Source: Flavobacteriales bacterium (GTDB taxonomy: Bacteria; Bacteroidota; Bacteroidia; Flavobacteriales_F; PHOS-HE28). Taken from it: a DNA stretch of 48,946 nucleotides. Below, in pieces: positions 7,347-38,757 of the stretch. The position numbers were made by a program, and so were the translations under genes. Every line of letters begins with the position of its first letter. Position 1 is the first letter of the stretch. The stretch lies in the NCBI GenBank assembly GCA_019912395.1, contig JAIOIH010000051.1, positions 1 through 48,946 on the forward strand. The letters run 5' to 3'. The notes beneath the pieces were generated by a model. That model was not told the DNA's origin and ran no database searches. It worked only from the letters and a program-made list of their open reading frames with translations.

Positions 7347-7467
7347 GGTACAGGGTACCGAGTACCGAGTACAGGGTACAGGGTATCGAGTACCGAGTAC
7401 CGAGCAAGGGGTAGCCGATGCAATGCACGGCATTGTACTCAATACCCTGTACCCGGTACCCTGTACC
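7347..7467. repeat. GGTACAGGGTACCGAGTA decamer repeats in inverted arrangement
   Basis: The left half is an array of 7-10 bp units (GTACAGG, GTACCGA, GTATCGA). The right half (TACTCAATACCCTGTACCC, then GGTACCCTGTACC) is their reverse complement, separated by a unique spacer of about 40 bp. It fills most of the pyrH-frr gap. Its design parallels the element upstream of pyrH, but with a different unit. Confidence 0.65.
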
Positions 7468-18282: not shown

Positions 18283-18681
18283 ATGAACGAAGAGCTGTCG
18301 AAATCAGGAAACGAGGATGGCGGGCACACCGGCCTGCGCAAGCGGCTGGACGAGGCGGTAGTGCTGATGGAAACCGTGGCCCAGCTTCGGAAGGACCTGC
18401 GTGTTGAGGACATGCAACTTCCAGGTGTGGGGGAAGGCGCGTTCGAGGAATTGCGCGCCCAAGTACTGCGCATCGTCGAGGATCGGCAACGCGAAGGAGC
18501 GCATGCATTCGGCCTGGTCATCAACCGCGTGGACCTTACCGAGCGCCAAGTAAAGGCGGCCATGGCGGCGAACGGCTTGAACGGCTTGAACGGCTTGGCA
18601 GGAAGCATCGTGCTGCGCTGTTTGCAGAAAGTGCTGAGCCGGATGCGCTATGCGGGATTGAAGGATGGATCAGCGGATTAG
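18283..18681 (+). CDS. Small hypothetical protein
   Basis: A 132-residue, charged, largely helical protein without signal peptide or membrane segment; I recognise no family. A central helix (about residues 18-75) has heptad-like spacing that could form a coiled coil. Near residues 97-105 the sequence NGLNGLNGL is encoded by three perfect copies of a 9-base unit (18571-18597), where slippage would add or remove three residues without breaking the frame. It is divergent from the exported-protein gene. Coding status is supported by the box CACCTTTG upstream and by regular third-position GC. The long minus-strand frame across it is an extension of the neighbour and is rejected. Confidence 0.6.
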   Translation: MNEELSKSGNEDGGHTGLRKRLDEAVVLMETVAQLRKDLRVEDMQLPGVGEGAFEELRAQVLRIVEDRQREGAHAFGLVINRVDLTERQVKAAMAANGLNGLNGLAGSIVLRCLQKVLSRMRYAGLKDGSAD

Positions 18682-21827: not shown

Positions 21828-23078
21828 ATGGCCAACATCGAAGTAAAAGTCCCCAGCCCCGGCGAAAGCATCAGTGAAGTGCGCATTGCGCAATGGCTGG
21901 TGGCTGATGGTGAGGTGGTGAAGAAGGACCAGGTGATCGCGGAGATCGACAGCGACAAGGCCACCTTGGAATTGAGCGCGGAGGAAGGCGGCAAGATCAG
22001 CCTGCTGGCCAAGGCCGATGAGACGGTGAACGTGGGCGACGTGGTGGCCAAGATCGACACGAGCGTGAAGCCTGCGAAGGACGAGAAGGGCGCGAAGGAG
22101 GTAAAGGATGTGAAGCCTGCGAAGGACGAGAAGGAGGTTCCCCGTAGCGTCGACCCAGCGGGTCGACCCGCTGCGGAAACCGCGGTTCACGCTACCCCCG
22201 TTGCCAAGGCCGTCATGGCCGAAAAGGGGATCTCCGGTGACCAGGTGAAGGGCACCGGGCCCAAGGGGCGCATCACACGCAGTGATGTGGAGGCCTACAT
22301 CGCCGGCGGCATCGCAGCACCTGCGTTGATGAACGGCTGGGGCGGAAGCCGGAACAGCAGCCGCGTGAAAATGAGCACCCTGCGCAAGAAGGTCGGGGAA
22401 CGCTTGGTGAGCGTAAAGAACGAAATGGCCATGCTCACCACCTTCAATGAGGTGGACATGAGCGCGATCATGGCCGTGCGCAACCAGTACAAGGACAAGT
22501 TCAAGGAGAAGTACGGCGTGGGCCTCGGCTTCATGTCGTTCTTCACCAAGGCTGTAACAGAGTCCTTGCGTTTGTTCCCCAACCTCAACGCGCAATTGGA
22601 TGGCGAGGAGATCGTCAACTTCGACTACGCGGACATCGGTGTGGCAGTGAGCTCGCCCAGGGGCTTGATGGTGCCGGTGGTGCGCAACGCCGAGCAGATG
22701 AGCCTTGCCGAGATCGAGAGCGCCATCAAGGAGCTTGCGACCAAGGCACGAGATGCCAAGTTGAGCCTGGCGGAAATGTCCGGAGGCACCTTCACCATCA
22801 CCAATGGCGGTGTCTTCGGCAGCATGCTCAGCACCCCCATCATCAATCCGCCTCAGAGCGCCATCCTCGGCATGCACAATATCGTGGAGCGGCCCGTGGC
22901 GGTGAACGGCCAAGTAGTGATCCGCCCGGTGATGTACGTGGCGCTGAGCTACGACCACCGCATCGTCGATGGCAAGGAGAGCGTGAGCTTCCTCTTCAAG
23001 GTAAAGGAGATGCTGGAAGATCCGGCCAAGATGGTTTTGGGCGGGAAGGATCCCGGAGCGGTGCTGGCGGGGTTGTGA
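21828..23078 (+). CDS. odhB: 2-oxoglutarate dehydrogenase E2 (dihydrolipoyl succinyltransferase)
   Basis: This subunit takes the succinyl group from E1 on a swinging lipoyl arm and transfers it to CoA. The 416-residue protein has one lipoyl domain (about 1-78, lipoylated Lys44 in EIDSDKATL), a linker, a peripheral-subunit-binding domain (about 122-165, with [14 protein letters not shown]), and the catalytic domain with the active-site SYDHRIVDG near residue 374. The linker is odd. It holds a 24-base direct repeat (22065-22088 and 22110-22133) encoding VKPAKDEK twice, then a palindrome-rich stretch (22144-22195) read as [18 protein letters not shown]. These look like additions tolerated by a flexible region. 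An R-M pair follows. Confidence 0.95.
22144..22195. repeat. Nested palindromic element inside the odhB linker
   Basis: Outer arms GTAGCGT (22144-22150) and ACGCTAC (22189-22195) enclose a perfect 18-bp palindrome CAGCGGGTCGACCCGCTG (22156-22173) and a 10-bp palindrome AACCGCGGTT (22178-22187). The whole element stays in frame with odhB. Confidence 0.65.
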
Positions 23079-23176
23079 AGAACCTTTTTCCAGAGGCTGG
23101 TCCATTGGCGAATACGGTTCCTACATTGACCGGCGCTACTCCGACGGATTCCACGTCGGTCGGCATTCATCAAGCC

Positions 23177-24298
23177 ATGTCCTACACCCTTACCCATGAA
23201 CGCCGCGCCGAGTACCGGCGCACTACGCAACGCTCCAACGAGCGCAAGCGATTGGCCTTGGTGGATGGTGCCTTGGAGCCGGTGCATCCGGTCAACACCC
23301 CGCGTTTCGATCCGAAGGAATTGATGCCGCAGATCGCACCGCATGGGTTGCGTGCGTTGTCCATGTTCACGGGCGGAGGAGGGCTGGACCTCGGCTTCGA
23401 GCGTGCCGGTTTTACACATGCGGCGGCTTACGAGATCCTGGACATCTGTGGCGAGACCTTGGCGCACAACCGGCCGGATTGGAACGTGTTCGCAGGCGCG
23501 GAAGGGGATGTCCGAAAAGTGGATTGGCGGCAATACCGGAGCGAAGTGGACCTGCTTCATGGTGGCCCGCCTTGCCAACCCTTTTCCGTCGCGGGGCATC
23601 AACGCGGTGAAGAGGATGAGCGCAACATGTGGCCCTCGTTCATCAAGGCAGTATTGGCGATCAGGCCGCGCGTGTTCGTGGCAGAGAACGTGCCCGGATT
23701 GTTGAACCCGAAGTTCAAGGACTTTGTGGAACAGGTGATCGAGGCACCGTTGAAGGGATCGTACAAATTGCACCGATTCATCATGCAGGCGGACCGTTTC
23801 GGTGTGCCACAGACGCGGAAGCGGGTGCTCATCATCGGGTTCCGCAACGCCACCGACCATGCCCGCTATGTTCCGCCAGCGCCAACGCATACCACGGAGC
23901 CGGAGCTGATGGACGAACTGAGCCGCTGTATCGGTGTTCGCGAGGCGTTGGGCCTGCCGGATATCGGGATGGACGGAATCGCCCCCACCTTGCGTTCGGG
24001 CTTCACCGGTCCGCGAAGTTGCACGGGCGTGGTGAACAGCAAGGCCTCGATGGTGACCTGGGGAAAGCTTGAAGTTTGGCCGAACGGCGTTCAACGCGAG
24101 CGGGAGCTGGCCAGCAATTTTCCGCCGGAGAACGGGCACTTCCGAATGTCCGTTCAGGATTGCGCATTGCTCCAAGGATTTCCTGCGGATTGGACGTTCA
24201 AGGGAGCCGTGTACCAGCAGCTCGGGCAGATCGGCAATTCCGTTTGCCCACCGGTGGCTTATCATGTGGCGCGGTCTATCTTGGCCGCGTTAGCATGA
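23177..24298 (+). CDS. Type II DNA (cytosine-5) methyltransferase
   Basis: The enzyme transfers a methyl group from SAM to C5 of cytosine in a specific DNA site. The 373-residue product shows the C5-MTase motifs in order: motif I FTGGGGLDLGFERAG (about 64-78), motif IV GGPPCQPFS with catalytic Cys133, motif VI ENVPGL (170-175), motif VIII GVPQTRKRV (209-217), a target-recognition region (about 220-325), and motif X GNSVCPPVA (353-361; the extra Cys before PP is slightly unusual). The ATG at 23177 is preferred over a GTG at 23075 that overlaps odhB. The restriction-like gene starts 3 bases after its stop, so they form a pair. The recognition site cannot be read from sequence. Confidence 0.93.
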   Translation: MSYTLTHERRAEYRRTTQRSNERKRLALVDGALEPVHPVNTPRFDPKELMPQIAPHGLRALSMFTGGGGLDLGFERAGFTHAAAYEILDICGETLAHNRPDWNVFAGAEGDVRKVDWRQYRSEVDLLHGGPPCQPFSVAGHQRGEEDERNMWPSFIKAVLAIRPRVFVAENVPGLLNPKFKDFVEQVIEAPLKGSYKLHRFIMQADRFGVPQTRKRVLIIGFRNATDHARYVPPAPTHTTEPELMDELSRCIGVREALGLPDIGMDGIAPTLRSGFTGPRSCTGVVNSKASMVTWGKLEVWPNGVQRERELASNFPPENGHFRMSVQDCALLQGFPADWTFKGAVYQQLGQIGNSVCPPVAYHVARSILAALA

Positions 24299-24301
24299 CC
24301 G

Positions 24302-25000
24302 ATGGCCGTACAGGACGATAGTCGCGAGCAGGAGCTCTGCAATCTCTTTAACCTGGTTTGGGACCCGGACCATGCAAGGGGAGGAGAGGACGCGTGGTTC
24401 GAAATGACCGTCAATGGGAAGAAGGTCCGCGTGGCCGTGGAGGTGAAGTCCACAACGAACGTTTCCATCAGCACTGCGCGGGACGTGGGCATGAAGCACA
24501 TCCGTAAATGGCGCGGGAAGATCTGGGTGATCGGCTATTACTCCGCTGAGGCTTCGCGGGGCAAACCCCGTTTGGTTTCGACACTGTGCTTGACACCGGA
24601 TGAGATGGAACCCTGGATCGCGCAAGTCGAGGGCTACATCGGAACCGACTTCCAAATAGGTGAGCTTGCCGCGAAGAAAATGACGCGAGCGGATTTATCG
24701 GTGATCTGTGGAGAGAAGAAGGTCTATTCACTGGAGGATGCGAAGCGGTTGTACAAGAAGCAGTGGAAATTGGAAGAATACCGCAATGCGATGGACCACG
24801 CCGACGGCTACAGTCCGGAGCGCATGTTGGAGATACTTCGGCAACGTGCGCAATACCTCATGGACCGGGGAGCTACGTTGAACAATCCGCACATTCCGAA
24901 AAGCTTCTTGAAGCGCTTCGGGGATCAACTGATCACGCATGAGCATGCCTCTCGGATCCGGGAGAAGTTCGCGGCCTACTTCAAGGATGCCCGGCATTAG
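24302..25000 (+). CDS. Candidate type II restriction endonuclease (PD-(D/E)XK-like)
   Basis: A 232-residue cytoplasmic protein not matching a named endonuclease family that I recognise. A PD-(D/E)XK-type core is visible: Asp30 (GGEDAWFEM), then Glu47 and Lys49 in VAVEVKSTT, 16 residues apart, with a preceding helix containing Glu11. The Ser-Thr-rich segment after the lysine fits a beta-strand edge. The C-terminal half is helical and basic and could bind DNA. Its position, 3 bases after a C5-methyltransferase stop, is the main argument for a restriction role. Alternative readings are a nuclease of another defence system or a DNA-repair nuclease. No controller (C) protein gene is seen. Confidence 0.68.
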   Translation: MAVQDDSREQELCNLFNLVWDPDHARGGEDAWFEMTVNGKKVRVAVEVKSTTNVSISTARDVGMKHIRKWRGKIWVIGYYSAEASRGKPRLVSTLCLTPDEMEPWIAQVEGYIGTDFQIGELAAKKMTRADLSVICGEKKVYSLEDAKRLYKKQWKLEEYRNAMDHADGYSPERMLEILRQRAQYLMDRGATLNNPHIPKSFLKRFGDQLITHEHASRIREKFAAYFKDARH

Positions 25001-25837: not shown

Positions 25838-28800
25838 ATGCGCCCGGTCCGGTCCTTCCTCAAGAAAATGGCCCTGGTCGCCTTTGCCTTGCTGCTCTGG
25901 CAGGGCGAGGCCCGTGCCACCCATGCCATGGGTGGTGAGCTCAGCTATACCTGCCTGGGCAATAACCAATATCTGGTCACCCTTAATTTCTACAGGGATT
26001 GCAACGGGGTGGCGGCGCCCACCAATTGCAACAACGGCCTGCGCTTCAATGTGGCATCCAGCGCCTGTGGAGCGAATTTCACGCAATGCTTCAATTCGGG
26101 TCCCGTCGTGCAGGTCATCACTCCGATCTGCCCCTCGGAGGTGGACCGGTGCGTAAGTGCCAGTGGTACCTATGGCGTGGAACGGTATACCTATACGAAG
26201 ATCGTGGACCTCAGCGCCTATGCCGCCTGCGGAGGCACGGACTGGAACTTCTCCTGGTCGCTCTGCTGCCGGAACAATGCGATCACCTCCTTGAACAATC
26301 CGGGCAACCGCGAATTGTACCTGGATGCCCTCTTGAACAATACGACCGGGCTCTGCAACAGCTCGCCGACCTTCACCAATTCACCCACGGCGTTCTATTG
26401 CCTGGGCGAGCCCATCAGCTATAACCCCGGTGCCGTGGATGCGGACGGTGATTCCCTTGTATATGCGCTGATCGGTGCCCGCACCGCGAACGGGGCGAAC
26501 ATTCCCTATAACGCGAACTATTCCGCCCTGCAACCCATCCGGAACAGCGGCGGGGCCAACGCGGTGGTGCTCGATCCCCAAACGGGCACCATGACCGTGA
26601 CGCCAAGTGTGCTGCAAGTGGCGGTGGTCACCTATCAGGTCAAGGAGTATCGGAACGGTGTTCTTGTCGGGACGGTGACGCGGGACGTGCAGTTCGTGAT
26701 CCGTGCCTGCACCGGGAATGCATCCCCGACCGTTACCGGGATCAATGGCACTGCGGTCTATTCCATGCAGGTGTGCGCCGGGACCCCGGTATCCTTCACG
26801 GTGAACTCCAATGATGCCAATGCGGGGCAGACCGTGACCATGACCTGGAACAGCGGTATTCCAGGAGCCACGTTCACCACCTCTGGATCTCCTTTCCCCT
26901 CGGGAACATTCACTTGGACACCTACGGTAGCGAACATCGGCAACAACACTTTTACCGTACACGTGGAAGATGATGGCTGTCCGCTGAAAGCATCCAACGA
27001 TTACGGCTTCTCCATTCAAGTAACACCACCAGCCACCGATGCGGACGCCGGGGCGGATTTCTCCGTTTGCGGAACCTCGGCCACCATGAACGCCGTTCTT
27101 CCCTATCCCAGTGTGCAGGGAACGTGGACGGTGATCAGCGGAAGCGGCACCTTCACGAACAACCATTCGCGGAATACCACGGTCACGGGACTCTCCCAAG
27201 GAGCCAACGTGTTCCAGTGGAGCGTGAACTACCTCACCTGCGGAACGCGCACGGACCAAGTAACGGTAACGAGCTATAACGCTGCCCAACCGGTGGCCAA
27301 CGCGGGTCCGGACCAACAGTTCTGCCTACCCGTCAACTCCGCAACACTGGCGGGCAATACGGCTGTTTCGCCGGCCGTGGGCACGTGGACCCTGGTGAAC
27401 GGTACAGGCACCATCACCAACCCGAATTCGCCCAGTTCCACTGTAACCGGACTTGGCATCGGGGTCAACCGTTTCCGGTGGACCATCGGCAACGGCCCTT
27501 GCGGCGCACCCACCCAGGACGAGGTGGTGATCACCATTTACAACAGCGCCCAACCAGCAGCCAACGCCGGCTCGGACATCACCATTTGCTCACCGACGAG
27601 TTCTGTGAACCTGAACGGCAATGCGGCAACCGCACCAGCCACCGGCTTGTGGACCCAAGTGAGCGGTGGTGGCACGATCGTGACCCCCACCAGCCGGAAC
27701 ACCAGCATCACCGGGCTCACCGTGGGCGTACACGTCTTCCGGTGGACCATCAGCAATGGGCCCTGCACACCCGGTTCCACATCCGACGATGTGACCGTTA
27801 CGGTCTATTCCAATACCAGCCCCAACGCGAATGCCGGCCCGGACCAAGAGGTATGCACGCCGAGCAATGCCACGCTGGCGGGCAGCACACCGACCTTTCC
27901 CGCAACCGGTGCGTGGACCCTGGTGAGCGGTTCGGGTACCATTACCACGGCCAACAGCCCCACGACCACCGTAACCGGCCTGGGCATTGGCGCCAATGTG
28001 TTCCAGTGGACGGTGAGCAACGGACCCTGTGCGAACGGGCTCACCAGCGATCAAGTGACCATTACGGCATTTGACCAAACGGTAAGCGGATCAAACGCCG
28101 GTCCGGACCAATCCTTCTGCCTGCCGACCACCAGTGCCACCATGGCGGCCAACGCACCCGCAGCACCCGCGCAGGGCACATGGACCCTGGTCTCCGGAAC
28201 CGGAGTGATCACCAACGTCAATAGCGCCACCACCACCATCACAGGTCTTTCCATCGGGGAGAACGTATTCCGCTGGGCCGTCAGCAATGGACCCTGCCCT
28301 GTAAACCCGCCGAACGACGTGGTCTCCATCTTCATCTACGATTCCAATGCACCTGCGGCCAATGCAGGTCCCGATCAGCAGCTCTGCACACCGTCCACAG
28401 CCACCGTGCTGGCAGGGAACGCCCCCGTGTTCCCGGCCACCGGCCAATGGACCGTTACTTCGGGCAGCGGCATTTTTGCGGATGCGAACGATCCCACCAC
28501 CTCGGTCTCCGGCCTGGGCGTGGGTGTGAACACCTTCCGCTGGACGCTCAACAACGGCCCTTGCTCCAACCCGATCACGCAGGATGAGGTGGCCATCACC
28601 GTGTACAATTCGGCCAATGCCGTGGCCAATGCCGGCCCGGACCAAGAGCTGTGTACGCCCACCAGCTCCACGATGTTGGCGGGCAGCGCGGTGATCGCAC
28701 CGGCCACGGGCACATGGACCTTGATCAGTGGCTCGGGAACCATCGTATCCCCCAACAACCCTGCGACGCAGATCACCGGTCTGGCCGTGGGGGACAATAT

Positions 28801-31800
28801 CTTCCGCTGGACGGTGAGCAACGGACCTTGCGCGAACCCCCTCACCACCGATGACGTGCGCATTCGCGTCTTCAACAGCAACAATCCGGTGGCCAATGCC
28901 GGCCCGGACCAGGAACTATGCTCGGACGCGAACTCAACCGTGCTTTCCGGTAGCAACATCATTCTTCCCGCATCCGGCACATGGACCCTGGTGAGCGGCG
29001 GGGGCACCCTCGTAACGCCCAATAGCCCGAACACCGCAGTGAACAACATCCCGGTGGGGGTGAACGTGTTCCGCTGGACGGTATCCAACGGGCCTTGTGC
29101 GAACGGAAGCACCTTTGATGAAGTCACCGTTACTGTATATGAAAGCACGCACCCGGCGATCACGGTGAGTGCTGACGAAAGCATTTGCGTGCCCACTTCG
29201 GCGAACACCGTAACTGTGACCGGCACCACGCCGATCGCACCGGCCACCGGGCAATGGACGGTGATCAGCGGAAGCGGTACGATCACTTCGCCAAACAACC
29301 CCTCCACCACCATCACGGACATGGGCTTCGGCGTGAACGTGTTCCAGTGGACCGTGACGAACGGGCCCTGCACGTTCCCCTCCAACAGCGCGCAGGTCTC
29401 CATCTCCGTGTACAACGCGGCCATGCTCACGGCGGACGCGGGGCCGGACCAGAGCCTCTGCACACCCATCACCAGCACCACCTTGGCCGGCAGTGCCTTG
29501 ATCGCTCCGGGTACCGGGCAGTGGACGCTCGTAAGCGGTTCCGGGACCTTCGCCAACGCCAACGACCCCGGCACCGTGGTCTCCGGCCTTTCCCTTGGAG
29601 CGAATGTCTTTGAGTGGAGCGTGCAGAACGGACCCTGTGCTGCGCCCAGCTCGGACCAGGTCACCATCTCCGTGTTCAATGGAAATGCCCAGCAGGCCAA
29701 TGCCGGCCCGGACCAGGAGCTGTGTGACAATAACGCCACCACGGTAATGGCCGCCAACGCCGCAGTGGCCCCGGCCATCGGCTCGTGGAGCGTGCAACAG
29801 GGCACCGCGACCTTTGCGAATGCCGCTTCGCCCACCACAGGTGTCTCGGGTCTTTCACTTGGTGTGAACATACTTGTATGGTCCTTGGACAATGGTGCCT
29901 GCGGAACCAGCACGGATGCGGTGAACATCACCGTGTATGATGATGCGAACCTCGTGGCCAATGCCGGTCCGGACCAAGATCTTTGCACGCCCACCACCGC
30001 TACCACCTTGAGCGGAAGTGCGCTCATCCCACCGGCCACGGGCACGTGGACCTTGGTCAGCGGAACGGGCAACATCGTATCCCCGGGCAGCCCCACCTCG
30101 CAGGTAAATGGACTGGCACTGGGCAACAACGTCTTCCGCTGGACGGTGTACAACGGGACTTGCGCCAACGGCACCACCTCCGATGAGGTCACCATCAGCA
30201 TCTTCAGTGGTAACGCACAGGCGGCCAATGCCGGTCCGGACCAGGCTGTTTGCACGCCGACCACCTCGGTGACCTTGGCGGCCAACATCGCTGTTGCCCC
30301 CGCGCAAGGCACGTGGACAGGGCCGGCAGGGGTCACCTTCTCCGATATCCATGCGGCCACTGCCACGGCCAGTGGACTGCAAGTAGGGGATAACGTACTC
30401 ACTTGGACCATCAACAACGGTTCCTGCGGAACCACTTCGGACCAAGTGCTCATCAAGTTGTTCGATGACAGCAATGCCGATGCGAACGCCGGCCTCGACC
30501 AGGAGCTATGTAGTCCAGCTGATTCCACCATGCTGGCGGGCAGCAGCCTGATCTATCCGGCCACCGGAACATGGACGCTCGTGAGCGGTACGGGAACCAT
30601 CGTGGACCCAAGCTCGCCCACCAGCCAGCTCACTGGTCTGGCCGTAGGGCCGAACGTGTTCCGATGGACGGTGGACAATGGCCCCTGCGGCGCAGGCATC
30701 ACCACGGACGAGGTCACCATCACGCTGTTCGACAGTACGGTGAGCGGTTCCGATGCCGGGCCGGACCAAAGCCTGTGTACGCCCAACACCACGGCCACCA
30801 TGGCGGCGAGCCCGGCACCCTCTCCGGCAGTGGGCACATGGACGCTCGTGAGCGGTGGCGGCGACATCACTGATGTGAACAACCCGAACACCACCATTAC
30901 CAACCTGCCGGTGGGCGAGAACCAGTTCCGCTGGTCGGTGAGCAACGGTGCATGCCCGGTGAACCCGCCCAATGACGTGGTCTCCATCTTCGTGTTCGAC
31001 GCCAACAACCCGGTGGCCAATGCCGGCCCCGATCAAAGCCTGTGTACGCCGACCACTTCCACCGTATTCGCCGGCAGCAGCGTGACATTCCCGGCGCAGG
31101 GCACATGGACCCTGGTGAGCGGCGGCGGTGCCATTGCCGATGTCAATTCACCCACCTCCGCAGTGAGCGGCCTGCCTGTTGGCGAGAACATCTTTGAATG
31201 GACCGTGAGCAACGGTCCTTGCGCGGACCCGATCACCAAGGACCGGGTGAGCATCTTCGTGTTCAACCAGGGCAACGCCGATGCGGATGCCGGACCGGAC
31301 CAGTCGCTTTGCACACCGGACGAGAGCACCACCCTCGCCGGCAACGCACCGATCTTCCCTGCCACGGGTGCATGGACCCGCATACTGGGTACAGGAACGA
31401 TCACCGATGCCAGCAACCCCGCCACCACCGTTACCGGCCTGGGCGTGGGTGAAAACGTCTTCGTGTGGACCGTGGACAACGGCCCTTGCGGCAATGGCAT
31501 CACCACGGATACGGTAAGCATCTTCCTCTTCGACTCCACCACGCCGAATGCCGACGCAGGCCCCGACCAGGACCTCTGCCTGCCCACAACTTCTACCACC
31601 TTGGCAGGAAGCCCGATCACCTTCCCGGCCGTGGGCACGTGGACCGTGGTGAACGGTACGGGCCAATTTGCCGATCCGAACTCCCCTACAACCGACGTGA
31701 CGGACCTGACGGTAGGTGCCAACGTATTCCGCTGGACCGTGGCCAATGGCCTGTGCAGCAGCAGCAGTGATGAGGTCACCATCTTCCTCTTCAGCGACGT

Positions 31801-34800
31801 GAACCTCGATGCGAACGCAGGCCCCGACCAGGAACTGTGTACACCCGATAGCACGGTGACCATGGCCGGCAGCGCGGTGATCTTCCCCGCCGTCGGCACG
31901 TGGACACTGGTCAGCGGCACGGGCATCATCAGCAACCCGAACTCACCCACCACGACCATCATCGACCTGGAAGTGGGAACGAACGTGTTCGCATGGACGG
32001 TTGACAACGGTCCTTGTGCGAACGCGACCACCAGCGACACGGTGGTGATCGACGTGTTCGACGGGAACAATCCCTCAGCGAACGCAGGCCCCGATCAGCA
32101 ACTCTGCACACCGGGCACCAGTGCGACCCTCACCGGCAGCAACGTGATCTCTCCCGCAACTGGCATCTGGACGGTGGTACAAGGGGCGGGCACCTTCGAC
32201 GATCCGAACGCTTCCAGCACAATGGTCAACGGATTGGCCGTGGGGGTGAACGTCATTCGCTGGACCGTATCCAACGGCCCATGCGAGAACGGTGACAGCT
32301 TCGATGAGGTCACCATCACGTTGTTCGACGAGAACAACCCCGTGGCGGACGCTGGACCTGATCAGAACCTTTGCACGCCGAATACTTCCACCACCATGGA
32401 CGGCAGCGCACTGATAGGCCCGGCCACCGGAAACTGGACGCTGGTGAACGGATCTGGAGTTCTTGCCGATCCCGGATCACCAACCAGCTCCGTCAGCGGC
32501 CTGGCAGTGGGGGAGAACGTGTTCGAGTGGACCGTGGAGAATGGCCCTTGCGGAACCTCGACCTCCGACCAGATGAGCATCTTCGTTTTCGATGATGCAA
32601 ATCCATTGGCCAACGCCGGTCCGGACCAGCAGGTATGTACGCCGCTCACCGGTACCACCCTGGCGGGAAGCGGGATCACCTTCCCGGCCACCGGTACGTG
32701 GGTCCTGGTCAGCGGCCAGGGCACCATCGTGGATCCGAACGATCCGGCAACGGAGGTCACGGATCTTGGCGTGGGGGAGAACATCTTCGAGTGGCGCGTG
32801 GACAATGGTCCCTGCGGTACCGGCTCCGATCAGGTGAGCATCTTCCTGTTCGACCTGAACGCCCCACCAGCGGACGCGGGACCTGACCAGAGCTTCTGCA
32901 CCCCGGATGACAGCGCGATCATGGCGGCCAACACGGCCACCTTGCCCGCCGTCGGCCAGTGGTCGGTAAGCCAGGGCACGGGCTTCTTCGCGGATGAGTT
33001 CGACCCGAACACCACCGTTACGGGGTTGACCGTGGGCGAGAACATCCTCACTTGGTCCTTCGACAACGGCGTGTGCGGCTTCACCACCGACAACGTGAGC
33101 ATCTTCATCTTCGATGACCAGAACCCGCCTGCGAACGCCGGCCCGGACCAAGCGTATTGCACCCCGCAGGACAGTACCTATCTGCAAGGCAATACACCGA
33201 CCTTCCCGGCGAGCGGCACGTGGAGCCTGTTCGATGGGGCCGGTCTTTTCGAGAACGTGAACGACCCCAACAGCAAAGTGGTTGGCATGGCCATCGGGGC
33301 CAACACCTTTATTTGGACCACGGACAATGGTCCCTGCCCGGATGCGATCACCTCCGACACCGTCACGGTGATCATTTACAGCGATAGCACCGCCGCCGCT
33401 GATGCGGGTGAGGATTTCGAGCTCTGCCTGCCCTTCAACTCGGCGCAGTTGCAGGCATCCACCCCGCAACCGCCGGCCACGGGAACATGGAGCATACTCA
33501 GCGGTCCGGGCACGCTGGTGGATCCCACCGACCCGACGACCACCATCAACGACCTCGACACCGCCGGCATCACCACCCTGGTGTGGACCTTGGACAACGG
33601 CCCTTGCCCCAACAACGGCCTGATGAGCGACACGCTCGTCATCACGGTGTACGACCCCTTCGGGCCGGTGGCCAATGCAGGTCCGGACATCTCCAATTGC
33701 ACGCCGGAGGACAGCACCGTAATGGCCGCGATCGAACCGCTCTTCCCCGCTGCGGGCACGTGGCACCTGGTGAGCGGTTCGGGCACCATCGCCGATAGCA
33801 CCGACCATGCCAGCGCGATAACCGGACTGGGCATCGGCATCAACGTCTTCACGTGGACGGTGTACAACGGCGATTGCGGCTTCGGCCCGCCCACGGTGGA
33901 TACGGTGGCCGTGTATCTCTATGACCAGAGCGCTCCTCCGGCCGCAGCAGGTGCGGACCAGGATGTGTGCGGGACCGATGCCACGGTCACGCTGGCCGGT
34001 AATGCCGCAGTGAACCCGGCGATCGGCACTTGGTCACAGGTGGGGGGAAGCGCGGCATTTGCCGATGCGAACGATCCACAGACCACGGTAAGCGGCCTCT
34101 CCGTGGGTGACAATTACCTTGTGTGGACGATCGATAACGGTCCGTGCAACTTGACAGCGGATACGGTGCTGATCCGCGTGTTCGATGCCACATTGCCGGA
34201 ACCGAACGCGGGTGACGACCAGGACCTCTGCAGCCCCGTTTCCTCCACCACCTTGGCAGCCAGCCCGGCCACCTATCCCGGCACGGGCCAGTGGAGCGTG
34301 ATCAGCGGCAGCGGCACCTTCACCGATCCCACGGACCCGGCCACGGAGGTGACGGGCTTCGGTCCGGGACCCAACGTCTACGCATGGACGATCAATAACG
34401 GCCCTTGCGGATCGATGGAGGACCAGGTCACCATCACCTTGTACGACGGCAGCATTACCACGGCAAACGCGGGTCCCGACCAGAACCTCTGTGGACCGGT
34501 GGACAGCACGCCCCTGGCCGCCACGGGAGTGAACGCGCCCGCCACGGGCATGTGGACCATCGTCAGTGGTGCAGGCACCTTGATCGATCCCACGGACCCG
34601 CAGACCACGCTCACCGGACTCGTGCCGGGACAGACCGAGCTCACTTGGACCATCAGCAACGGACCCTGCGGCTCGGGCCCCATGACCGATAACGTGGTGA
34701 TCACCGTGTTCGACAATACCCAAGCAGCGGCGGATGCCGGACCGGACCAGCAACTTTGCGAGCCGGGTGCGGTGGATGTGGACATGTTCGCCAACCAGGC

Positions 34801-35521
34801 CGTGTCCCCCGCGACCGGTTACTGGAGCATCGATGGAAGCGGCACCATCTCCGATCCCGGGAACCCGAACACCACGGTAACGGGAGTGGGCTTTGGCAGC
34901 ACCACGCTCACGTGGACCATTGACAACGGGGTTTGCGGCACCTCCAGCGACGAGATGGTCGTGGCGGTGTTCGACATCAATGCGGCCTTGGCGGAAGGCG
35001 GACCGGACCAGGCGATCTGCCAGGACACCACCTATACGAACATGGCTGCCGTACCGGCAACGAGCACGGCATCGGGCCATTGGGAGCTGATCGCCGGCCA
35101 TGGGGATATCACCCAGCCCGACCACGCGGATGCCGAGGTCACCGGACTGCCACCCGGCACCAACATCTTCCGCTGGGTGCTGAACAACGGCGCATGCGGC
35201 AGCTCCGCGGACACCGTGGTGATCACCTTGCGCGACTGCAGTATCCTGGTGGTGCCGGACGCCTTCTCGCCCAATGGTGACGGCGTGAACGACACCTATG
35301 TGATCCAAGGACTGGACTACTATCCGAACAACTCCTTCCAGGTCTTCAACCGCTGGGGATCGAAGGTGTACGAACGCGATCCCTACCGCAACACGTGGGA
35401 CGGGACCAGTGAGGGGAAGGCCAACATGGGCACCGACCTGCCGGAAAGCACCTACTACTACATCCTCGATCCGGGCGATGGCAAGGAGGTCATCACGGGT
35501 TACATCTACCTGCGCCGCTGA
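25838..35521 (+). CDS. Giant repeat adhesin with CHU_C (T9SS type B) sorting domain
   Basis: A predicted cell-surface protein of about 3,227 residues, similar in design to SprB-type adhesins. It has a signal peptide (about 1-28, ending GEARA), an N-terminal Cys-rich domain (about 29-290, starting THAMGGELSYTC), an Ig/cadherin-like domain (about 290-395), 31 copies of an 80-90 residue repeat (about 398-3130), and a gliding-motility-associated C-terminal domain (about 3133-3227, with PDAFSPNGDGVND, VFNRWGSKVYE and a final GYIYLRR). Each repeat follows the plan NAGPDQxLC...GTWTLVSGxG...VFxWTVxNGPC. The ATG at 25838 is chosen because it precedes the signal peptide directly. porP/sprF follows 2 bases later. 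Adhesion, biofilm or gliding are likely roles but unproved. Confidence 0.9.
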   Translation: MRPVRSFLKKMALVAFALLLWQGEARATHAMGGELSYTCLGNNQYLVTLNFYRDCNGVAAPTNCNNGLRFNVASSACGANFTQCFNSGPVVQVITPICPSEVDRCVSASGTYGVERYTYTKIVDLSAYAACGGTDWNFSWSLCCRNNAITSLNNPGNRELYLDALLNNTTGLCNSSPTFTNSPTAFYCLGEPISYNPGAVDADGDSLVYALIGARTANGANIPYNANYSALQPIRNSGGANAVVLDPQTGTMTVTPSVLQVAVVTYQVKEYRNGVLVGTVTRDVQFVIRACTGNASPTVTGINGTAVYSMQVCAGTPVSFTVNSNDANAGQTVTMTWNSGIPGATFTTSGSPFPSGTFTWTPTVANIGNNTFTVHVEDDGCPLKASNDYGFSIQVTPPATDADAGADFSVCGTSATMNAVLPYPSVQGTWTVISGSGTFTNNHSRNTTVTGLSQGANVFQWSVNYLTCGTRTDQVTVTSYNAAQPVANAGPDQQFCLPVNSATLAGNTAVSPAVGTWTLVNGTGTITNPNSPSSTVTGLGIGVNRFRWTIGNGPCGAPTQDEVVITIYNSAQPAANAGSDITICSPTSSVNLNGNAATAPATGLWTQVSGGGTIVTPTSRNTSITGLTVGVHVFRWTISNGPCTPGSTSDDVTVTVYSNTSPNANAGPDQEVCTPSNATLAGSTPTFPATGAWTLVSGSGTITTANSPTTTVTGLGIGANVFQWTVSNGPCANGLTSDQVTITAFDQTVSGSNAGPDQSFCLPTTSATMAANAPAAPAQGTWTLVSGTGVITNVNSATTTITGLSIGENVFRWAVSNGPCPVNPPNDVVSIFIYDSNAPAANAGPDQQLCTPSTATVLAGNAPVFPATGQWTVTSGSGIFADANDPTTSVSGLGVGVNTFRWTLNNGPCSNPITQDEVAITVYNSANAVANAGPDQELCTPTSSTMLAGSAVIAPATGTWTLISGSGTIVSPNNPATQITGLAVGDNIFRWTVSNGPCANPLTTDDVRIRVFNSNNPVANAGPDQELCSDANSTVLSGSNIILPASGTWTLVSGGGTLVTPNSPNTAVNNIPVGVNVFRWTVSNGPCANGSTFDEVTVTVYESTHPAITVSADESICVPTSANTVTVTGTTPIAPATGQWTVISGSGTITSPNNPSTTITDMGFGVNVFQWTVTNGPCTFPSNSAQVSISVYNAAMLTADAGPDQSLCTPITSTTLAGSALIAPGTGQWTLVSGSGTFANANDPGTVVSGLSLGANVFEWSVQNGPCAAPSSDQVTISVFNGNAQQANAGPDQELCDNNATTVMAANAAVAPAIGSWSVQQGTATFANAASPTTGVSGLSLGVNILVWSLDNGACGTSTDAVNITVYDDANLVANAGPDQDLCTPTTATTLSGSALIPPATGTWTLVSGTGNIVSPGSPTSQVNGLALGNNVFRWTVYNGTCANGTTSDEVTISIFSGNAQAANAGPDQAVCTPTTSVTLAANIAVAPAQGTWTGPAGVTFSDIHAATATASGLQVGDNVLTWTINNGSCGTTSDQVLIKLFDDSNADANAGLDQELCSPADSTMLAGSSLIYPATGTWTLVSGTGTIVDPSSPTSQLTGLAVGPNVFRWTVDNGPCGAGITTDEVTITLFDSTVSGSDAGPDQSLCTPNTTATMAASPAPSPAVGTWTLVSGGGDITDVNNPNTTITNLPVGENQFRWSVSNGACPVNPPNDVVSIFVFDANNPVANAGPDQSLCTPTTSTVFAGSSVTFPAQGTWTLVSGGGAIADVNSPTSAVSGLPVGENIFEWTVSNGPCADPITKDRVSIFVFNQGNADADAGPDQSLCTPDESTTLAGNAPIFPATGAWTRILGTGTITDASNPATTVTGLGVGENVFVWTVDNGPCGNGITTDTVSIFLFDSTTPNADAGPDQDLCLPTTSTTLAGSPITFPAVGTWTVVNGTGQFADPNSPTTDVTDLTVGANVFRWTVANGLCSSSSDEVTIFLFSDVNLDANAGPDQELCTPDSTVTMAGSAVIFPAVGTWTLVSGTGIISNPNSPTTTIIDLEVGTNVFAWTVDNGPCANATTSDTVVIDVFDGNNPSANAGPDQQLCTPGTSATLTGSNVISPATGIWTVVQGAGTFDDPNASSTMVNGLAVGVNVIRWTVSNGPCENGDSFDEVTITLFDENNPVADAGPDQNLCTPNTSTTMDGSALIGPATGNWTLVNGSGVLADPGSPTSSVSGLAVGENVFEWTVENGPCGTSTSDQMSIFVFDDANPLANAGPDQQVCTPLTGTTLAGSGITFPATGTWVLVSGQGTIVDPNDPATEVTDLGVGENIFEWRVDNGPCGTGSDQVSIFLFDLNAPPADAGPDQSFCTPDDSAIMAANTATLPAVGQWSVSQGTGFFADEFDPNTTVTGLTVGENILTWSFDNGVCGFTTDNVSIFIFDDQNPPANAGPDQAYCTPQDSTYLQGNTPTFPASGTWSLFDGAGLFENVNDPNSKVVGMAIGANTFIWTTDNGPCPDAITSDTVTVIIYSDSTAAADAGEDFELCLPFNSAQLQASTPQPPATGTWSILSGPGTLVDPTDPTTTINDLDTAGITTLVWTLDNGPCPNNGLMSDTLVITVYDPFGPVANAGPDISNCTPEDSTVMAAIEPLFPAAGTWHLVSGSGTIADSTDHASAITGLGIGINVFTWTVYNGDCGFGPPTVDTVAVYLYDQSAPPAAAGADQDVCGTDATVTLAGNAAVNPAIGTWSQVGGSAAFADANDPQTTVSGLSVGDNYLVWTIDNGPCNLTADTVLIRVFDATLPEPNAGDDQDLCSPVSSTTLAASPATYPGTGQWSVISGSGTFTDPTDPATEVTGFGPGPNVYAWTINNGPCGSMEDQVTITLYDGSITTANAGPDQNLCGPVDSTPLAATGVNAPATGMWTIVSGAGTLIDPTDPQTTLTGLVPGQTELTWTISNGPCGSGPMTDNVVITVFDNTQAAADAGPDQQLCEPGAVDVDMFANQAVSPATGYWSIDGSGTISDPGNPNTTVTGVGFGSTTLTWTIDNGVCGTSSDEMVVAVFDINAALAEGGPDQAICQDTTYTNMAAVPATSTASGHWELIAGHGDITQPDHADAEVTGLPPGTNIFRWVLNNGACGSSADTVVITLRDCSILVVPDAFSPNGDGVNDTYVIQGLDYYPNNSFQVFNRWGSKVYERDPYRNTWDGTSEGKANMGTDLPESTYYYILDPGDGKEVITGYIYLRR
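27031..35230 (+). repeat. 31 tandem protein repeats of 80-90 residues in the adhesin
   Basis: Counting starts of the NAGPDQ/DAGPDQ-type motif gives 31 units, average spacing about 265 bases. Each has two cysteines, one after the start motif (LCTP) and one in NGPC, which could form one disulfide per repeat. The unit is Thr-, Asn-, Gly-rich and acidic. I find only about three lysines in the whole array (near LIKLFDD, ITKDRV and NSKVVG). Codon choice differs among units, so the copies are old. Confidence 0.9.
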
Positions 35522-35523
35522 TC

Positions 35524-36507
35524 ATGAAAGCAACCACAAAAACAACCACGATGATGGCATCCAAGGCCTCCCGTTGGAAAATGGCGTTGCTCGCGCTTTT
35601 GCTGGCAGGACCGCTGCTGCTGCCCAAGCAGGCAAAGGCCCAGCAGGACCCGCAGTACACCCAGTACATGTTCAATCTGTTGGCCATCAACCCGGCCTAC
35701 GCGGGGAGCGCGGACCGGATCAGCATCAAGGCCCTCAGTCGGCACCAATGGGTGGGCTTCGAAGGAGCCCCCACCACGCAGACGCTCACCATGCACAGTC
35801 CCTTCCTGCTGCAGAGCATAGGGCTCGGCGGCACCGTGATGCGGGATGAGCATGGACCCGTGACGCAATATGGCTTGATCGTGGACGTGGCCTACCGCAT
35901 GTTCCTGGCGAACGACCAAAAGTTGGCCTTCGGCATCAAGGGCGGCCTCAACCTCTTCCAGGGCGACTTCGCCGCACTGCACCCCTTGGAGGCCAACGAC
36001 CAGGTGTTCCAGCAGAACGTAAGCACCAAGACCGACCCGCAGTTCGGCTTCGGCATCATGTGGTACGGCGACAGGTTCTACCTCGGCCTCAGCTCGCCCA
36101 AGGTGCTGCGCACGGACTTCTTCGAGGTGGACTCCCTGCGCTTCGTGAGCCAGCCGGGTCAACGGGCGCACTATTTCCTCACCGGTGGCTACGTGTTCAA
36201 CTTAAGCACTTACACCAAGTTCAAGCCCACCTTCATGGTGAAGGCGGTGGAGGGAGCGCCCATGAGCTTCGACATCGGTGCGAACTTCCTGCTTTACGAG
36301 AAGCTGTGGCTAGGGGCCATGTACCGCTATACCGACGCCGTGGGCGCCTTGGTGCAGTACAACCTCACGGACGGGCTCTCGGTCGGCTATGCGTACGATT
36401 ATCCCTTGTCCCCCCTGCGTAATTACAGCGGTGGTTCGCACGAGTTCATGCTGGGCCTCGATTTCGGTACCGCGCCGAAGGGGATCCGTTCACCCCGTTA
36501 TTTCTGA
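35524..36507 (+). CDS. PorP/SprF-family type IX secretion membrane protein
   Basis: An outer-membrane beta-barrel protein that in Flavobacterium johnsoniae SprF is needed for secretion of the SprB adhesin encoded next to it; paralogs are thought to handle proteins with type B sorting domains. The 327-residue product has a signal peptide (about 1-39, ending KQAKAQ), the diagnostic QDPQYTQYMFNLLAINPAYAGS motif right after it, and alternating aromatic strands with the final MLGLDFGT. It starts 2 bases after the adhesin stop and its stop is 4 bases before the next gene, so the three form an operon. Its partner is most likely the upstream adhesin. Confidence 0.93.
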   Translation: MKATTKTTTMMASKASRWKMALLALLLAGPLLLPKQAKAQQDPQYTQYMFNLLAINPAYAGSADRISIKALSRHQWVGFEGAPTTQTLTMHSPFLLQSIGLGGTVMRDEHGPVTQYGLIVDVAYRMFLANDQKLAFGIKGGLNLFQGDFAALHPLEANDQVFQQNVSTKTDPQFGFGIMWYGDRFYLGLSSPKVLRTDFFEVDSLRFVSQPGQRAHYFLTGGYVFNLSTYTKFKPTFMVKAVEGAPMSFDIGANFLLYEKLWLGAMYRYTDAVGALVQYNLTDGLSVGYAYDYPLSPLRNYSGGSHEFMLGLDFGTAPKGIRSPRYF

Positions 36508-36511
36508 CCCG

Positions 36512-38704
36512 ATGCAGCGATCCATACCCATGCTTCCCCGGCAGATCATCCTTGCCATGGCCGTGCTGCTGCTGGCATCCCCTGCCGTGCAGGCGCAAAA
36601 GCTCAAGCACCGCATGGCGGAGAATTACGCCGCGGTGTTCGATTACACGAACATGGCCAAGGTGTATGAGGACATCATTGCCGGCAAGAAGGCCGAACCG
36701 GCCGACTACAGGCAGCTCGCCTTCGCGTACAAGAAGCTCGGCGACCATGCCAAGGCCGCCGAGACCTACAAGAAGCTCATCGACCTGGGCAGCCCTGCAC
36801 CGGACGACATCCTCGCATACGCCGATCAACTGCGGGCACAGGGCAAGTACGACGATGCCATGGCCTGGTACGGGACCTACTCCGAGAAGGCTCCCGATGA
36901 TGAATGGGTGAAGACCTACGTGAAGAACGGGGACTTCTTTGAAAGGTTGGTGCGCGACAGCACCAAGGATGTCGTCCGGTTCCTGCCCATCAACTCGACA
37001 GAGGCAGACCTGGCCCCCACCGTGATGAGGGACCTGCTCCTGTTCAGCAGTGCGCGAGGTGAGGGAGTGGGCGGAAAGACCAAGTACAAGTGGGACCGCG
37101 AACCCTATCTGAATCTCTATTCTGCGCTGCTGAAGGGAGAGACCGCCACTGACCCCATGGTAATGCGCAAGGACGTGAACAGCCGCTACCACGACGGCAC
37201 GGCCTCGTTCGATTCCACCCAGAACCGCCTCTATTTCACCCGGGACAACTACTACTACGGCAAGCTGATCAAGGCTTCCAACGGAGAGGTGAAGCTGGGC
37301 ATTTACTACACGGACATAACCACGGGCGAGTTCGGCCAACCCGAATGGGGCGGGCTTACACCCTTCGAGCACAACGATCCCGAATACAACGTGGGCCAAC
37401 CGTGCGTATCACCGGACGGCAAGCGGATCTACTTCGTCAGTGACCGGCCCGGTGGGCGCGGCGGTACGGACATCTGGTACTGCGATCGGAAGGGGGTGGA
37501 TTGGGGTGAGCCGAAGAACATTGGCAGTAAGGTGAACACGCCGGGAAGCGAGATGTACCCCTTCATCACCGCGGACAGCACGCTCTACTTCAGCAGCACG
37601 GGCCAACCCGGCTTGGGCGGATACGATATCTTCTCAGTGGTGCTCACCCCCGAGGGGCCCGGCCGGGTGTTCAACCTCGGATACCCGATGAACACCACGT
37701 ACAATGATCACGGCCTGGTCCTACTGGCCGATGACAGCACCGGCTTCTTTGCCAGTGATCGACCCGGCGGCATGGGCGGTGACGACATCTACGGATGTAC
37801 CGTGCATCCGCCACGCATCCGCATACAGGGCATCGTGGTGGACAAGCTCTCCCAAGCTGCGGTGGACGGTGCCCTCGTGGACATCCGCGATGCCAATGGC
37901 ACCTTCATCGATGGGGCGAAAGTGGAGATGCTCGACGGCGGGCGCTTTACCATCGAGCTTCCGTACAGGGACACGTACACCATCACGGCCAGCTGCAGCG
38001 GTTATCGCCAAGGCACCACCATCGTGGACAGCGAGAATGACGACCTGGACAACGTGGTGGTGCAGATGGAGAAGTACGACTACGGGGCGGAAGGCATCGT
38101 GAGGCACGGCGAGACCAAGGTCCCGCTGGACAGCTCGAAAGTCGTGCTATTGAACGCGGACGGTGCCGTGATGGAGGAAATGTACACCGCTGCGGACGGC
38201 CATTACCAGTTCGGGCTGCAAGCCGAGGGCGACTTCCGGATCACTGCGGAGCGCGCGGGCTTCTTCAAGCAAAGCGCGCGGATCTCCACCAAGGGCAAGA
38301 CCAACACGGTGATCCATACCGACTTCAACCTGTTCCCGCTGAAGGTGGACCAAGTGGTACGCCTGGACAACATCTACTATGACCTGGCCAAGTGGAACAT
38401 CCGCCCGGATGCGGCCTTGGAACTGGACAAACTGGTGCAAACGCTCAACGACAATCCCTCGGTGAAGATCGAGCTGAGTTCTCATACCGACTGTCGCGGC
38501 AAGGATGCCTACAACATGAACCTTTCGGAGAAACGGGCCAAAAGCGCCGTGGACTATTTGATCAAGCAGGGCATTGCCAAGGACCGCCTCACGGCGAAGG
38601 GATACGGGGAGACCAAGCCCGTGGAAACCTGCGAATGCAGCAAGTGTTCCGAGGAACAGCATCAGGCCAATCGCCGCACCGAGTTCAAGGTGCTCTCAAA
38701 ATAG
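36512..38704 (+). CDS. PorE-like protein: TPR, PD40 propeller, carboxypeptidase-like domains, OmpA
   Basis: A 730-residue periplasmic or outer-membrane protein. Domains in order: signal peptide (about 1-29), TPR-like helices (about 40-150), PD40 propeller blades (about 160-430, with VSPDGKRIYFVSDRPGG and FFASDRPGGMGGDDIYG), two carboxypeptidase regulatory-like domains (about 435-605), and an OmpA peptidoglycan-binding domain (about 610-730, with SSHTDCRGKDAYNMNLSEKRA and LTAKGYGETKPV). This is the layout of PorE of the type IX secretion system, which binds peptidoglycan. It may anchor the PorP/SprF protein or the adhesin export site to the cell wall. It is the last gene of the operon, followed by a strong terminator. 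Confidence 0.9.
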   Translation: MQRSIPMLPRQIILAMAVLLLASPAVQAQKLKHRMAENYAAVFDYTNMAKVYEDIIAGKKAEPADYRQLAFAYKKLGDHAKAAETYKKLIDLGSPAPDDILAYADQLRAQGKYDDAMAWYGTYSEKAPDDEWVKTYVKNGDFFERLVRDSTKDVVRFLPINSTEADLAPTVMRDLLLFSSARGEGVGGKTKYKWDREPYLNLYSALLKGETATDPMVMRKDVNSRYHDGTASFDSTQNRLYFTRDNYYYGKLIKASNGEVKLGIYYTDITTGEFGQPEWGGLTPFEHNDPEYNVGQPCVSPDGKRIYFVSDRPGGRGGTDIWYCDRKGVDWGEPKNIGSKVNTPGSEMYPFITADSTLYFSSTGQPGLGGYDIFSVVLTPEGPGRVFNLGYPMNTTYNDHGLVLLADDSTGFFASDRPGGMGGDDIYGCTVHPPRIRIQGIVVDKLSQAAVDGALVDIRDANGTFIDGAKVEMLDGGRFTIELPYRDTYTITASCSGYRQGTTIVDSENDDLDNVVVQMEKYDYGAEGIVRHGETKVPLDSSKVVLLNADGAVMEEMYTAADGHYQFGLQAEGDFRITAERAGFFKQSARISTKGKTNTVIHTDFNLFPLKVDQVVRLDNIYYDLAKWNIRPDAALELDKLVQTLNDNPSVKIELSSHTDCRGKDAYNMNLSEKRAKSAVDYLIKQGIAKDRLTAKGYGETKPVETCECSKCSEEQHQANRRTEFKVLSK

Positions 38705-38721: not shown

Positions 38722-38757
38722 GGATGCGCCTCGGCTTGCCGGGGCGCATCCATTTTT
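38722..38757 (+). terminator. Rho-independent terminator of the adhesin operon
   Basis: GGATGCGCC and GGCGCATCC form a 9-bp stem, extended by CGGC/GCCG and a T-G wobble to about 14 bp with a 2-base loop, followed by ATTTTT. It lies 17 bases after the PorE-like stop. Confidence 0.8.

What the first reader, a model, noticed from the sequence alone, without database searches (positions are those of the whole stretch)
25838..38704. Self-contained export and anchoring module for one giant T9SS type B adhesin
The sequence shows a 3,227-residue repeat protein with a CHU_C tail, a PorP/SprF protein 2 bases after it, a TPR/propeller/OmpA protein 4 bases after that, and a strong terminator. SprF-SprB pairing is known; the addition of a dedicated PorE-like OmpA protein in the same operon suggests that this adhesin brings its own cell-wall anchor. 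The dedicated role is inferred.
Basis: partly seen in the sequence, partly recalled or inferred. Interest (0 to 1): 0.75.

Follow-up and report, generated by a model that had tools for sequence, protein, structure and literature searches.

The report
Adhesin operon with own wall anchor
A Bacteroidota gene trio makes a giant surface adhesin, the outer-membrane barrel that carries it and a protein that probably ties that barrel to the cell wall; this kind of trio is already described, but the barrel's last few residues may be an address tag that tells fixed adhesins from moving ones.

Summary
In detail: a giant repeat protein with a type B (CHU_C) tail, a PorP/SprF barrel 2 bases later, a TPR/propeller/OmpA protein 4 bases after that, then a strong hairpin terminator. 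The OmpA protein is not the organism's only PorE-like protein; a better core-PorE candidate lies elsewhere. The gene order occurs four times in this genome, and PorP/PorE-like neighbours were found in 12 of 22 PorP-bearing genomes sampled. PorE-like proteins co-vary with their own PorP more than with other PorPs of the same genome. "Self-contained export" is wrong: core T9SS genes lie elsewhere. The idea is already published (Gorasia 2022; Paillat 2025: five such operons in F. johnsoniae, one CTD shown static). What I did not find in print is a possible address tag in the PorP C-terminus. PorPs ending P-R-[FY]-F or similar lie beside a PorE-like gene (27 of 28 in one sample, 62 of 67 in a second). 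Cys-tailed PorPs rarely do (6 of 54; 2 of 10), and 17 of the first sample's 57 lie with GldJ. These tallies are not phylogenetically independent. The trio is a new member of a known kind; the tail code is the novel, untested part.

The parts
25838..35521 (+). Giant T9SS type B adhesin (3227 aa from this ATG; frame open from ATG 25784). Signal peptide, N-terminal domain, about 31 PKD-like units of ~88 aa, strongly acidic (264 D+E, 56 K+R in the 3245-aa frame).
35252..35512 (+). CHU_C / TIGR04131 type B sorting domain of the adhesin
35524..36507 (+). PorP/SprF carrier barrel (327 aa), 14 strands in the predicted model
36466..36504 (+). C-tail of PorP after the last strand (residues 315-327, no secondary structure in the model), ending S-P-R-Y-F; proposed docking tag for the PorE-like protein
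   Evidence: periplasmic side and docking inferred
36512..38704 (+). PorE-like adaptor (730 aa), signal peptide without lipobox
36581..36955 (+). TPR region of the PorE-like protein (residues 24-148)
36971..37801 (+). Beta-propeller (PD40) region (residues 154-430)
37823..38335 (+). Carboxypeptidase-regulatory-like beta domains (residues 438-608)
38348..38692 (+). OmpA-type peptidoglycan-binding domain; the Asp, Asn and Arg whose side chains contact peptidoglycan in PorE (6TOP) are conserved
38722..38751 (+). Intrinsic terminator hairpin followed by ATTTTT

Best explanation
A type B adhesin carrier-and-anchor operon. The shared T9SS exports the adhesin; its CHU_C domain stays bound to its own PorP/SprF barrel in the outer membrane. 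The periplasmic PorE-like protein binds the inner side of that barrel through its TPR/propeller half and grips peptidoglycan with its OmpA domain, so the adhesin is fixed to the wall and does not travel on the gliding track. Shown here: gene order, domains, peptidoglycan-contact residues, conservation, co-variation of PorP and PorE-like. Shown by others in relatives: PG1035-PorP-PorE complex; only static foci for Fjoh_3952. Inferred here: the static role of this adhesin, and that the PorP C-tail (P-R-[FY]-F) is the contact with the PorE-like protein.
For: Triad four times in the own genome: window, C75:56-59 kb, C24, C21. 31 of 158 PorPs from 22 genomes have an OmpA-bearing PorE-like gene next door, in 12 genomes; 28 of these 31 also have CHU_C upstream. 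PorP and PorE-like tree distances correlate in the 31 pairs (r 0.79); with partners shuffled only within a genome the null mean is 0.53, maximum 0.75, 0 of 5000 reach it. PorE's Asp576, Asn584 and Arg591 are conserved in the window. The window tail lacks the Cys-X-Cys of SprF. 17 of 158 PorPs carry a C-terminal extension; of the ten scanned, four bear OmpA and four SPOR (weakly) over the Pfam cut-off, which independently links this barrel to wall binding. Published: PG1035-PorP-PorE complex (PMC9143113); static Fjoh_3952 (PMC12618676).
Against: No interaction, localisation or expression data for this organism. Ten PRxF-type operons of the second sample and four Cys-tail ones of the first have a PorE-like module without an OmpA domain as scored (in one of the ten, L312, it lies in another frame), so wall binding is not universal. 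Two Cys-tail PorPs (L122, L138) and one ending V-P-S-F (L219) do have an OmpA-bearing neighbour, and one PRYF PorP (L118) has none. The window protein has no lipobox and scores below the PorE model cut-off. In P. gingivalis the PorP-PG1035 complex forms without PorE, and small amounts of PorK and PorN co-purify. One mobile F. johnsoniae case, Fjoh_1123, moved in only 3% of cells and was mostly static, so operon type and mobility do not map perfectly.
Confidence: 0.82

Rival explanations
1. The PorE-like protein is a general envelope-integrity or core T9SS factor (CHU_0125- or PorE-type) that only happens to sit beside the adhesin and serves the whole cell.
For: It scores 449 bits to the CHU_0125_OmpA model and 380 to T9SS_PorE. 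PorE of P. gingivalis is called essential for T9SS function (abstract of PMC7192894, listing).
Against: Neither model's cut-off (620, 600) is met. An unlinked C19 copy fits PorE better (534 bits), although it too is under the cut-off. Four triads exist in one genome, and partners co-vary within genomes.
Confidence: 0.1
2. The adhesin is a gliding adhesin of the SprB kind, and the PorE-like protein assists track attachment or reloading.
For: The organism carries GldJ, GldK and GldL genes, and SprB is a giant type B adhesin.
Against: The window PorP has no tail cysteine. [quoted passage not shown]
Confidence: 0.06
3. The PRxF / Cys tail pattern is only a clade marker, inherited together with the gene neighbourhood, and has no contact function.
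For: On the PorP tree OmpA-linked, core and GldJ-linked rows cluster. The independent-pair tests have few supported pairs (2 for PRxF and 7 for Cys, 4), in most of which the neighbour either goes the same way or does not differ; none can reach significance.
Against: In an alignment of 28 PorPs (29-49% identity to the window) the terminal Arg is one of 13 invariant columns while the preceding linker varies; the three OmpA-linked PorPs without such a tail were left out of that alignment, and over all 31 Arg stands at -3 in 25 and Phe at the end in 27. In the tree group that holds 28 of the 31, five of the seven rows without the tail also lack the PorE-like gene. Core PorPs beside GldL end in a similar [VP]R[FYW]L in 10 of 14.
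Confidence: 0.4

Closest known systems
F. johnsoniae type B operons with SprF-like shuttle and PorE homolog (five operons; Fjoh_3952-3951-3950), PMC12618676
   Same: Same three kinds of gene in one operon; for Fjoh_3952-3951-3950 the PorE-like gene lies directly downstream of the shuttle gene; [quoted passage not shown]
   Different: Different organism and adhesin. I could not compare the F. johnsoniae sequences themselves.
P. gingivalis PG1035-PorP-PorE complex, PMC9143113
   Same: Type B protein on a PorP barrel held by a TPR/propeller/CRD/OmpA protein.
   Different: P. gingivalis has a single PorP and its PorE is a lipoprotein; here the copy is operonic, one of several PorE-like proteins, and without a lipobox.
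F. johnsoniae SprB-SprF gliding adhesin, PMC12635249
   Same: Giant type B adhesin carried by its own PorP/SprF barrel.
   Different: SprF has a Cys-X-Cys tail bonded to GldK and no PorE-like neighbour; the window PorP ends SPRYF and has one.

Membership tests
T9SS type B substrate (CHU_C) | C-terminal PF13585/TIGR04131 domain over cut-off | tested here: met
   95.1 bits (cut-off 27) and 57.6 bits (cut-off 35)
PorP/SprF family | PF11751/TIGR03519 over cut-off and a 14-stranded barrel | tested here: met
   281 bits to both; predicted model has 14 strands; best fold hit a chain of a T9SS complex (8gl6_F, TM 0.56 on the query)
SprF gliding-type carrier | Cysteine motif in the periplasmic C-tail | tested here: not met
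   Tail TAPKGIRSPRYF has no Cys; motif from PMC12635249
PorE (NCBIfam T9SS_PorE) | Model cut-off of 600 bits | tested here: not met
   379.9 bits, two stretches
PorE (NCBIfam T9SS_PorE) | TPR + propeller + carboxypeptidase-regulatory + OmpA architecture | tested here: met
PorE (NCBIfam T9SS_PorE) | Peptidoglycan-contact residues Asp, Asn, Arg | tested here: met
   alignment to 6TOP
PorE (NCBIfam T9SS_PorE) | Lipoprotein signal | tested here: not met
   No lipobox; 27 of 31 operonic PorE-like proteins (window included) have none by a simple pattern
PorE (NCBIfam T9SS_PorE) | Needed for T9SS function | not testable with these tools
   needs a deletion
Published operon kind: type B substrate + SprF-like shuttle + PorE homolog | All three genes in one operon | tested here: met
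   same strand, gaps of 2 and 4 bases, terminator after the third gene; co-transcription itself not measured

The most novel reading that the evidence does not exclude
The last residues of PorP/SprF carriers are an address label for type B adhesins. P-R-[FY]-F recruits an adjacent PorE-like adaptor through its TPR/propeller half (static, wall-tied). C-P-x-F or C-x-C attaches the carrier to the gliding track (GldK/GldJ; such PorPs lie beside GldJ in 15 of 22 genomes sampled). [VP]-R-[FYW]-L marks the core PorP beside GldK-GldL. Other carriers bear the wall anchor in cis as an OmpA or SPOR domain. A tail would then predict, from sequence, whether an adhesin is fixed or mobile.
Probability: 0.5. 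Interest if true: 0.75.

Novelty: new member of a known kind. Interest (0 to 1): 0.48.

Why it matters
Bacteroidota genomes can hold many type B adhesins, and what decides whether one is fixed or rides the gliding track is open. This operon, its paralogs and its cis-fused relatives suggest a sequence rule that is testable with tail swaps between carriers in F. johnsoniae.

Tried and rejected

Led nowhere: no solved structure matches the PorP by sequence at E 0.01. PorP alignment A1 was too varied for a collection search. Independent-pair tests of tail against neighbour have no power. I looked for a way to reach the named F. johnsoniae genome, to calibrate the tails against Fjoh_3951 and SprF, and found none.

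Limits of the survey. PorP itself is not universal: in the phylum sample 18 of 41 genomes have a match and 15 one over the cut-off. First sample: 158 PorPs from 22 genomes (13 own, 145 others). Places of the twelve genomes G018-G029 were fetched only down to about 138 bits (one search lists weaker ones); of the phylum sample places under 70 bits and one of G036 were left out, and genomes with weak matches only were not fetched. Repeats within a genome and matches shorter than 150 residues were dropped. Tail classes were set after seeing the own genome; without it the first sample gives 23 of 24 PRxF-type and 2 of 50 Cys-type with an OmpA-bearing neighbour. Before these counts 20 of 158 rows were dropped: 14 beside GldL and 6 with under 2500 bases downstream and no partner. 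Second sample: the 80 best of 431 relatives of one Flavobacterium limi PorP, giving 84 PorPs, of which 81 were counted. Alignment A2 left out L122, L138 and L219, the OmpA-linked PorPs without a PRxF-like tail, so its invariant Arg holds for 28 of 31. The row G061/L108 first flagged as GldJ-adjacent is not GldJ and is dropped from the GldJ count, though it was still in the tree labels. A GldJ model was the best NCBIfam match for the 15 others, over that model's cut-off in 10 of 15. Of the 17 extended PorPs ten were scanned.
Full report
WHAT IS THERE. The three genes are as described: adhesin frame to 35521 (3227 aa from ATG 25838), PorP/SprF 35524-36507, PorE-like 36512-38704, then a 13-pair hairpin with a T run. 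The adhesin has about 31 PKD-like units of ~88 aa (30 motif hits; 28 units compared, mean identity 0.49), is strongly acidic, and ends in CHU_C. The predicted PorP model has 14 strands and a 13-residue tail after the last strand. With an even strand count and a periplasmic N-terminus the tail should lie in the periplasm (inference). The PorE-like model shows TPR helices, a propeller, beta domains and an OmpA-type domain. The OmpA part is closest in sequence to the PorE C-terminal domain 6TOP and keeps the Asp, Asn and Arg whose side chains contact peptidoglycan (fold match).

IS IT SPECIFIC TO THIS ADHESIN? The own genome (87 contigs, 99% complete) has 13 PorP/SprF and 44 CHU_C matches, 43 over the cut-off. 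The window PorE-like protein has 26 matches at 19 places, 12 of them over the propeller half; 8 proteins carry both PD40 and OmpA by Pfam. The order adhesin-PorP-OmpA protein occurs four times: the window, C75:56-59 kb, C24 and C21. The best PorE by NCBIfam is a stand-alone gene on C19 (534 bits against 380 for the window, both under the cut-off of 600). A PorP beside GldK and GldL is on C45. So the window gene is neither the only PorE-like protein nor part of a self-contained exporter; it is an add-on to a shared T9SS.

CONSERVATION. In 20 sampled genomes of the genus, own genome included, 19 have the PorE-like protein at 56% identity or more; G005 has only a 36% relative. Among the 19 loci, a PorP with a G-[IV]-R-S-P-R-Y-F tail is present in 18 and CHU_C in 17; the misses (L228, L234) lie at contig ends. 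Between PorP and PorE-like the junction is tight in the orthologs printed.

For 31 PorP/PorE-like neighbours from 12 genomes the tree distances correlate with r 0.79. Shuffling partners only within each genome gives a mean of 0.53 and a maximum of 0.75; 0 of 5000 shuffles reach the observed value. Each PorE-like copy thus tracks its own PorP beyond shared species history. Nearest neighbours in another genome agree for 21 of 31, so 10 do not.

SURVEY OF TAILS. I collected 158 PorPs from 22 genomes. By C-terminus: 40 end R-[YFWH]-[FLM] (one further residue allowed; called PRxF-type), 57 have a Cys in the last nine residues, 17 have a C-terminal extension, 44 are other. Leaving out 14 PorPs beside GldL and 6 with too little downstream sequence, an OmpA-bearing PorE-like gene follows 27 of 28 PRxF-type and 2 of 54 Cys-type (Fisher 3e-18; without the own genome 23 of 24 and 2 of 50), and 2 of the other class (tails A-P-R-F and V-P-S-F). 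Counting PorE-like modules with or without an OmpA domain: 27 of 28, 6 of 54, 3 of 39 other, 0 of 17 extended. The one PRxF-type miss is L118. In a second sample, the 80 best loci of 431 related to one F. limi PorP, the figures with module are 62 of 67 PRxF-type, 2 of 10 Cys-type and 0 of 4 other; with an OmpA domain as scored 52, 1 and 0 (Fisher 6e-5 for the first two). Of the two Cys-type rows with a module, L306 ends S-P-R-Y-F-C-T-F and L287 ends C-P-R-L-F. The five PRxF-type misses are three S-I-R-Y-F tails in Carboxylicivirga loci, one T-P-R-F-F in L305 and one core-like T-V-R-F-L in L307.

CAVEAT. These counts are not independent observations. On the PorP tree the OmpA-linked, GldJ-linked and core rows cluster (3, 2 and 2 changes against shuffled means of 21, 16 and 13), and the independent-pair tests have too few pairs. 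Within the 36-row group (support 84) that holds 28 of the 31 OmpA-linked PorPs, seven rows lack a PRxF-type tail: five of them, in three lineages (G057; L102/L094; L101/L093), also lack the PorE-like gene, while the two near-identical G020 rows end A-P-R-F and keep it. In alignment A2 the tail Arg is invariant and the Pro and last Phe are 90% or more, but A2 holds 28 of the 31 and left out the three without such a tail; over all 31 the last four positions read P in 24, R in 25, F or Y in 26, F in 27.

OTHER CLASSES. Of the 57 Cys-type PorPs, 17, from 15 loci in 15 genomes, lie with a GldJ gene on the same strand (one further flagged row, L108, is dropped). A GldJ model is the best NCBIfam match in the 15 loci, over its cut-off in 10. 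In 15 of the 17 GldJ follows within 94 bases; in two a second such PorP lies between. Their tails end mostly C-P-x-F. This fits the published disulfide of SprF to GldK in the GldJ/GldK/GldN track (PMC12635249: found passages and the first part of the Discussion read). Ten of 14 PorPs beside GldL end R-[FYW]-L. Of 17 PorPs with a C-terminal extension, ten were scanned: four have OmpA and four SPOR over the Pfam cut-off (SPOR by 0.2 to 2.9 bits only), one SPOR just under it, one TPR; 14 of the 17 have CHU_C upstream. A barrel fused to a wall-binding domain is independent evidence that tying PorP to the wall is a recurring function.

WHERE WOULD THE TAIL BIND? Nine of the ten second-sample PRxF-type operons without a scored OmpA domain come from Carboxylicivirga, other Marinilabiliaceae records, Plebeiobacterium and one Bacteroidales MAG, and have a PorE-like protein of about 500 aa; two were scanned by Pfam and show TPR and PD40 but no OmpA domain. 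The tenth (L312) has its OmpA part in another frame. Because the PRYF-type tail stays although OmpA is missing, the TPR/propeller half is the likelier docking site (inference). Against the TPR part alone: the C21 partner in the own genome has no TPR match at E 0.001, yet its PorP ends D-P-R-Y-F. Most operonic PorE-like proteins lack a lipobox (27 of 31 by a simple pattern in the first sample; 59 of 64 in the second), so they probably need a partner to stay at the outer membrane, unlike lipoprotein PorE.

LITERATURE. Gorasia 2022 (PMC9143113: abstract, passages and Discussion read) shows the PG1035-PorP-PorE complex, states that six F. johnsoniae porP-like genes lie next to porE-like genes, and postulates wall anchoring of non-mobile type B proteins; it also reports that PorP-PG1035 forms without PorE. 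Paillat 2025 (PMC12618676: abstract, passages and section 11 read) counts five operons with PorE homolog, type B substrate and shuttle, and saw only static foci for Fjoh_3952; of its mobile set, Fjoh_1123 moved in 3% of cells only. PMC10202324, PMC7192894 and PMC7807042 were seen in passages. Kulkarni 2019 is not held. I did not find a C-tail rule or OmpA/SPOR fusions of PorP in searches of an open-licence library, which does not prove absence from print.

VERDICT. The window holds a real, conserved new member of a published kind of operon. The static wall-anchor role is likely (0.82) but untested in this organism. The address-tag idea is the part worth following.

Noticed in passing
window 46346-48946 (+): Start of a second giant adhesin-like frame (867 aa, open at the window end) with a similar N-terminus and 237-bp repeats; its C-terminus and any partner genes lie outside the window.
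   Followed up: no
L210, L216, L115, L126 (OmpA); L198, L175, L190, L207 (SPOR): PorP/SprF barrels fused to their own peptidoglycan-binding domain; the SPOR matches are just over the Pfam cut-off.
   Followed up: partly
L076, L117, L130, L168, L174, L180, L181, L182, L185, L188, L191, L192, L194, L196, L212: Cys-tailed PorP directly upstream of GldJ, or of a second PorP that is.
   Followed up: yes
L254, L255, L259, L261, L262, L264, L265, L282, L284, L287: PorE-like proteins of about 500 aa without a detected OmpA domain, beside PorPs that end P-R-[YH]-F (C-P-R-L-F in L287).
   Followed up: partly
G000:C60:71799-74624 (L070): Different order in the own genome: CHU_C adhesin, then a propeller protein without OmpA, then a Cys-tailed PorP.
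   Followed up: partly
window 23075-24298 (+): DNA cytosine-5 methyltransferase; the next frame 24302-25000 has no Pfam match at E 0.001.
   Followed up: no
window 7347-7418 and 18570-18597: Short tandem repeats with units of 7 (and multiples) and 9 bases.
   Followed up: no
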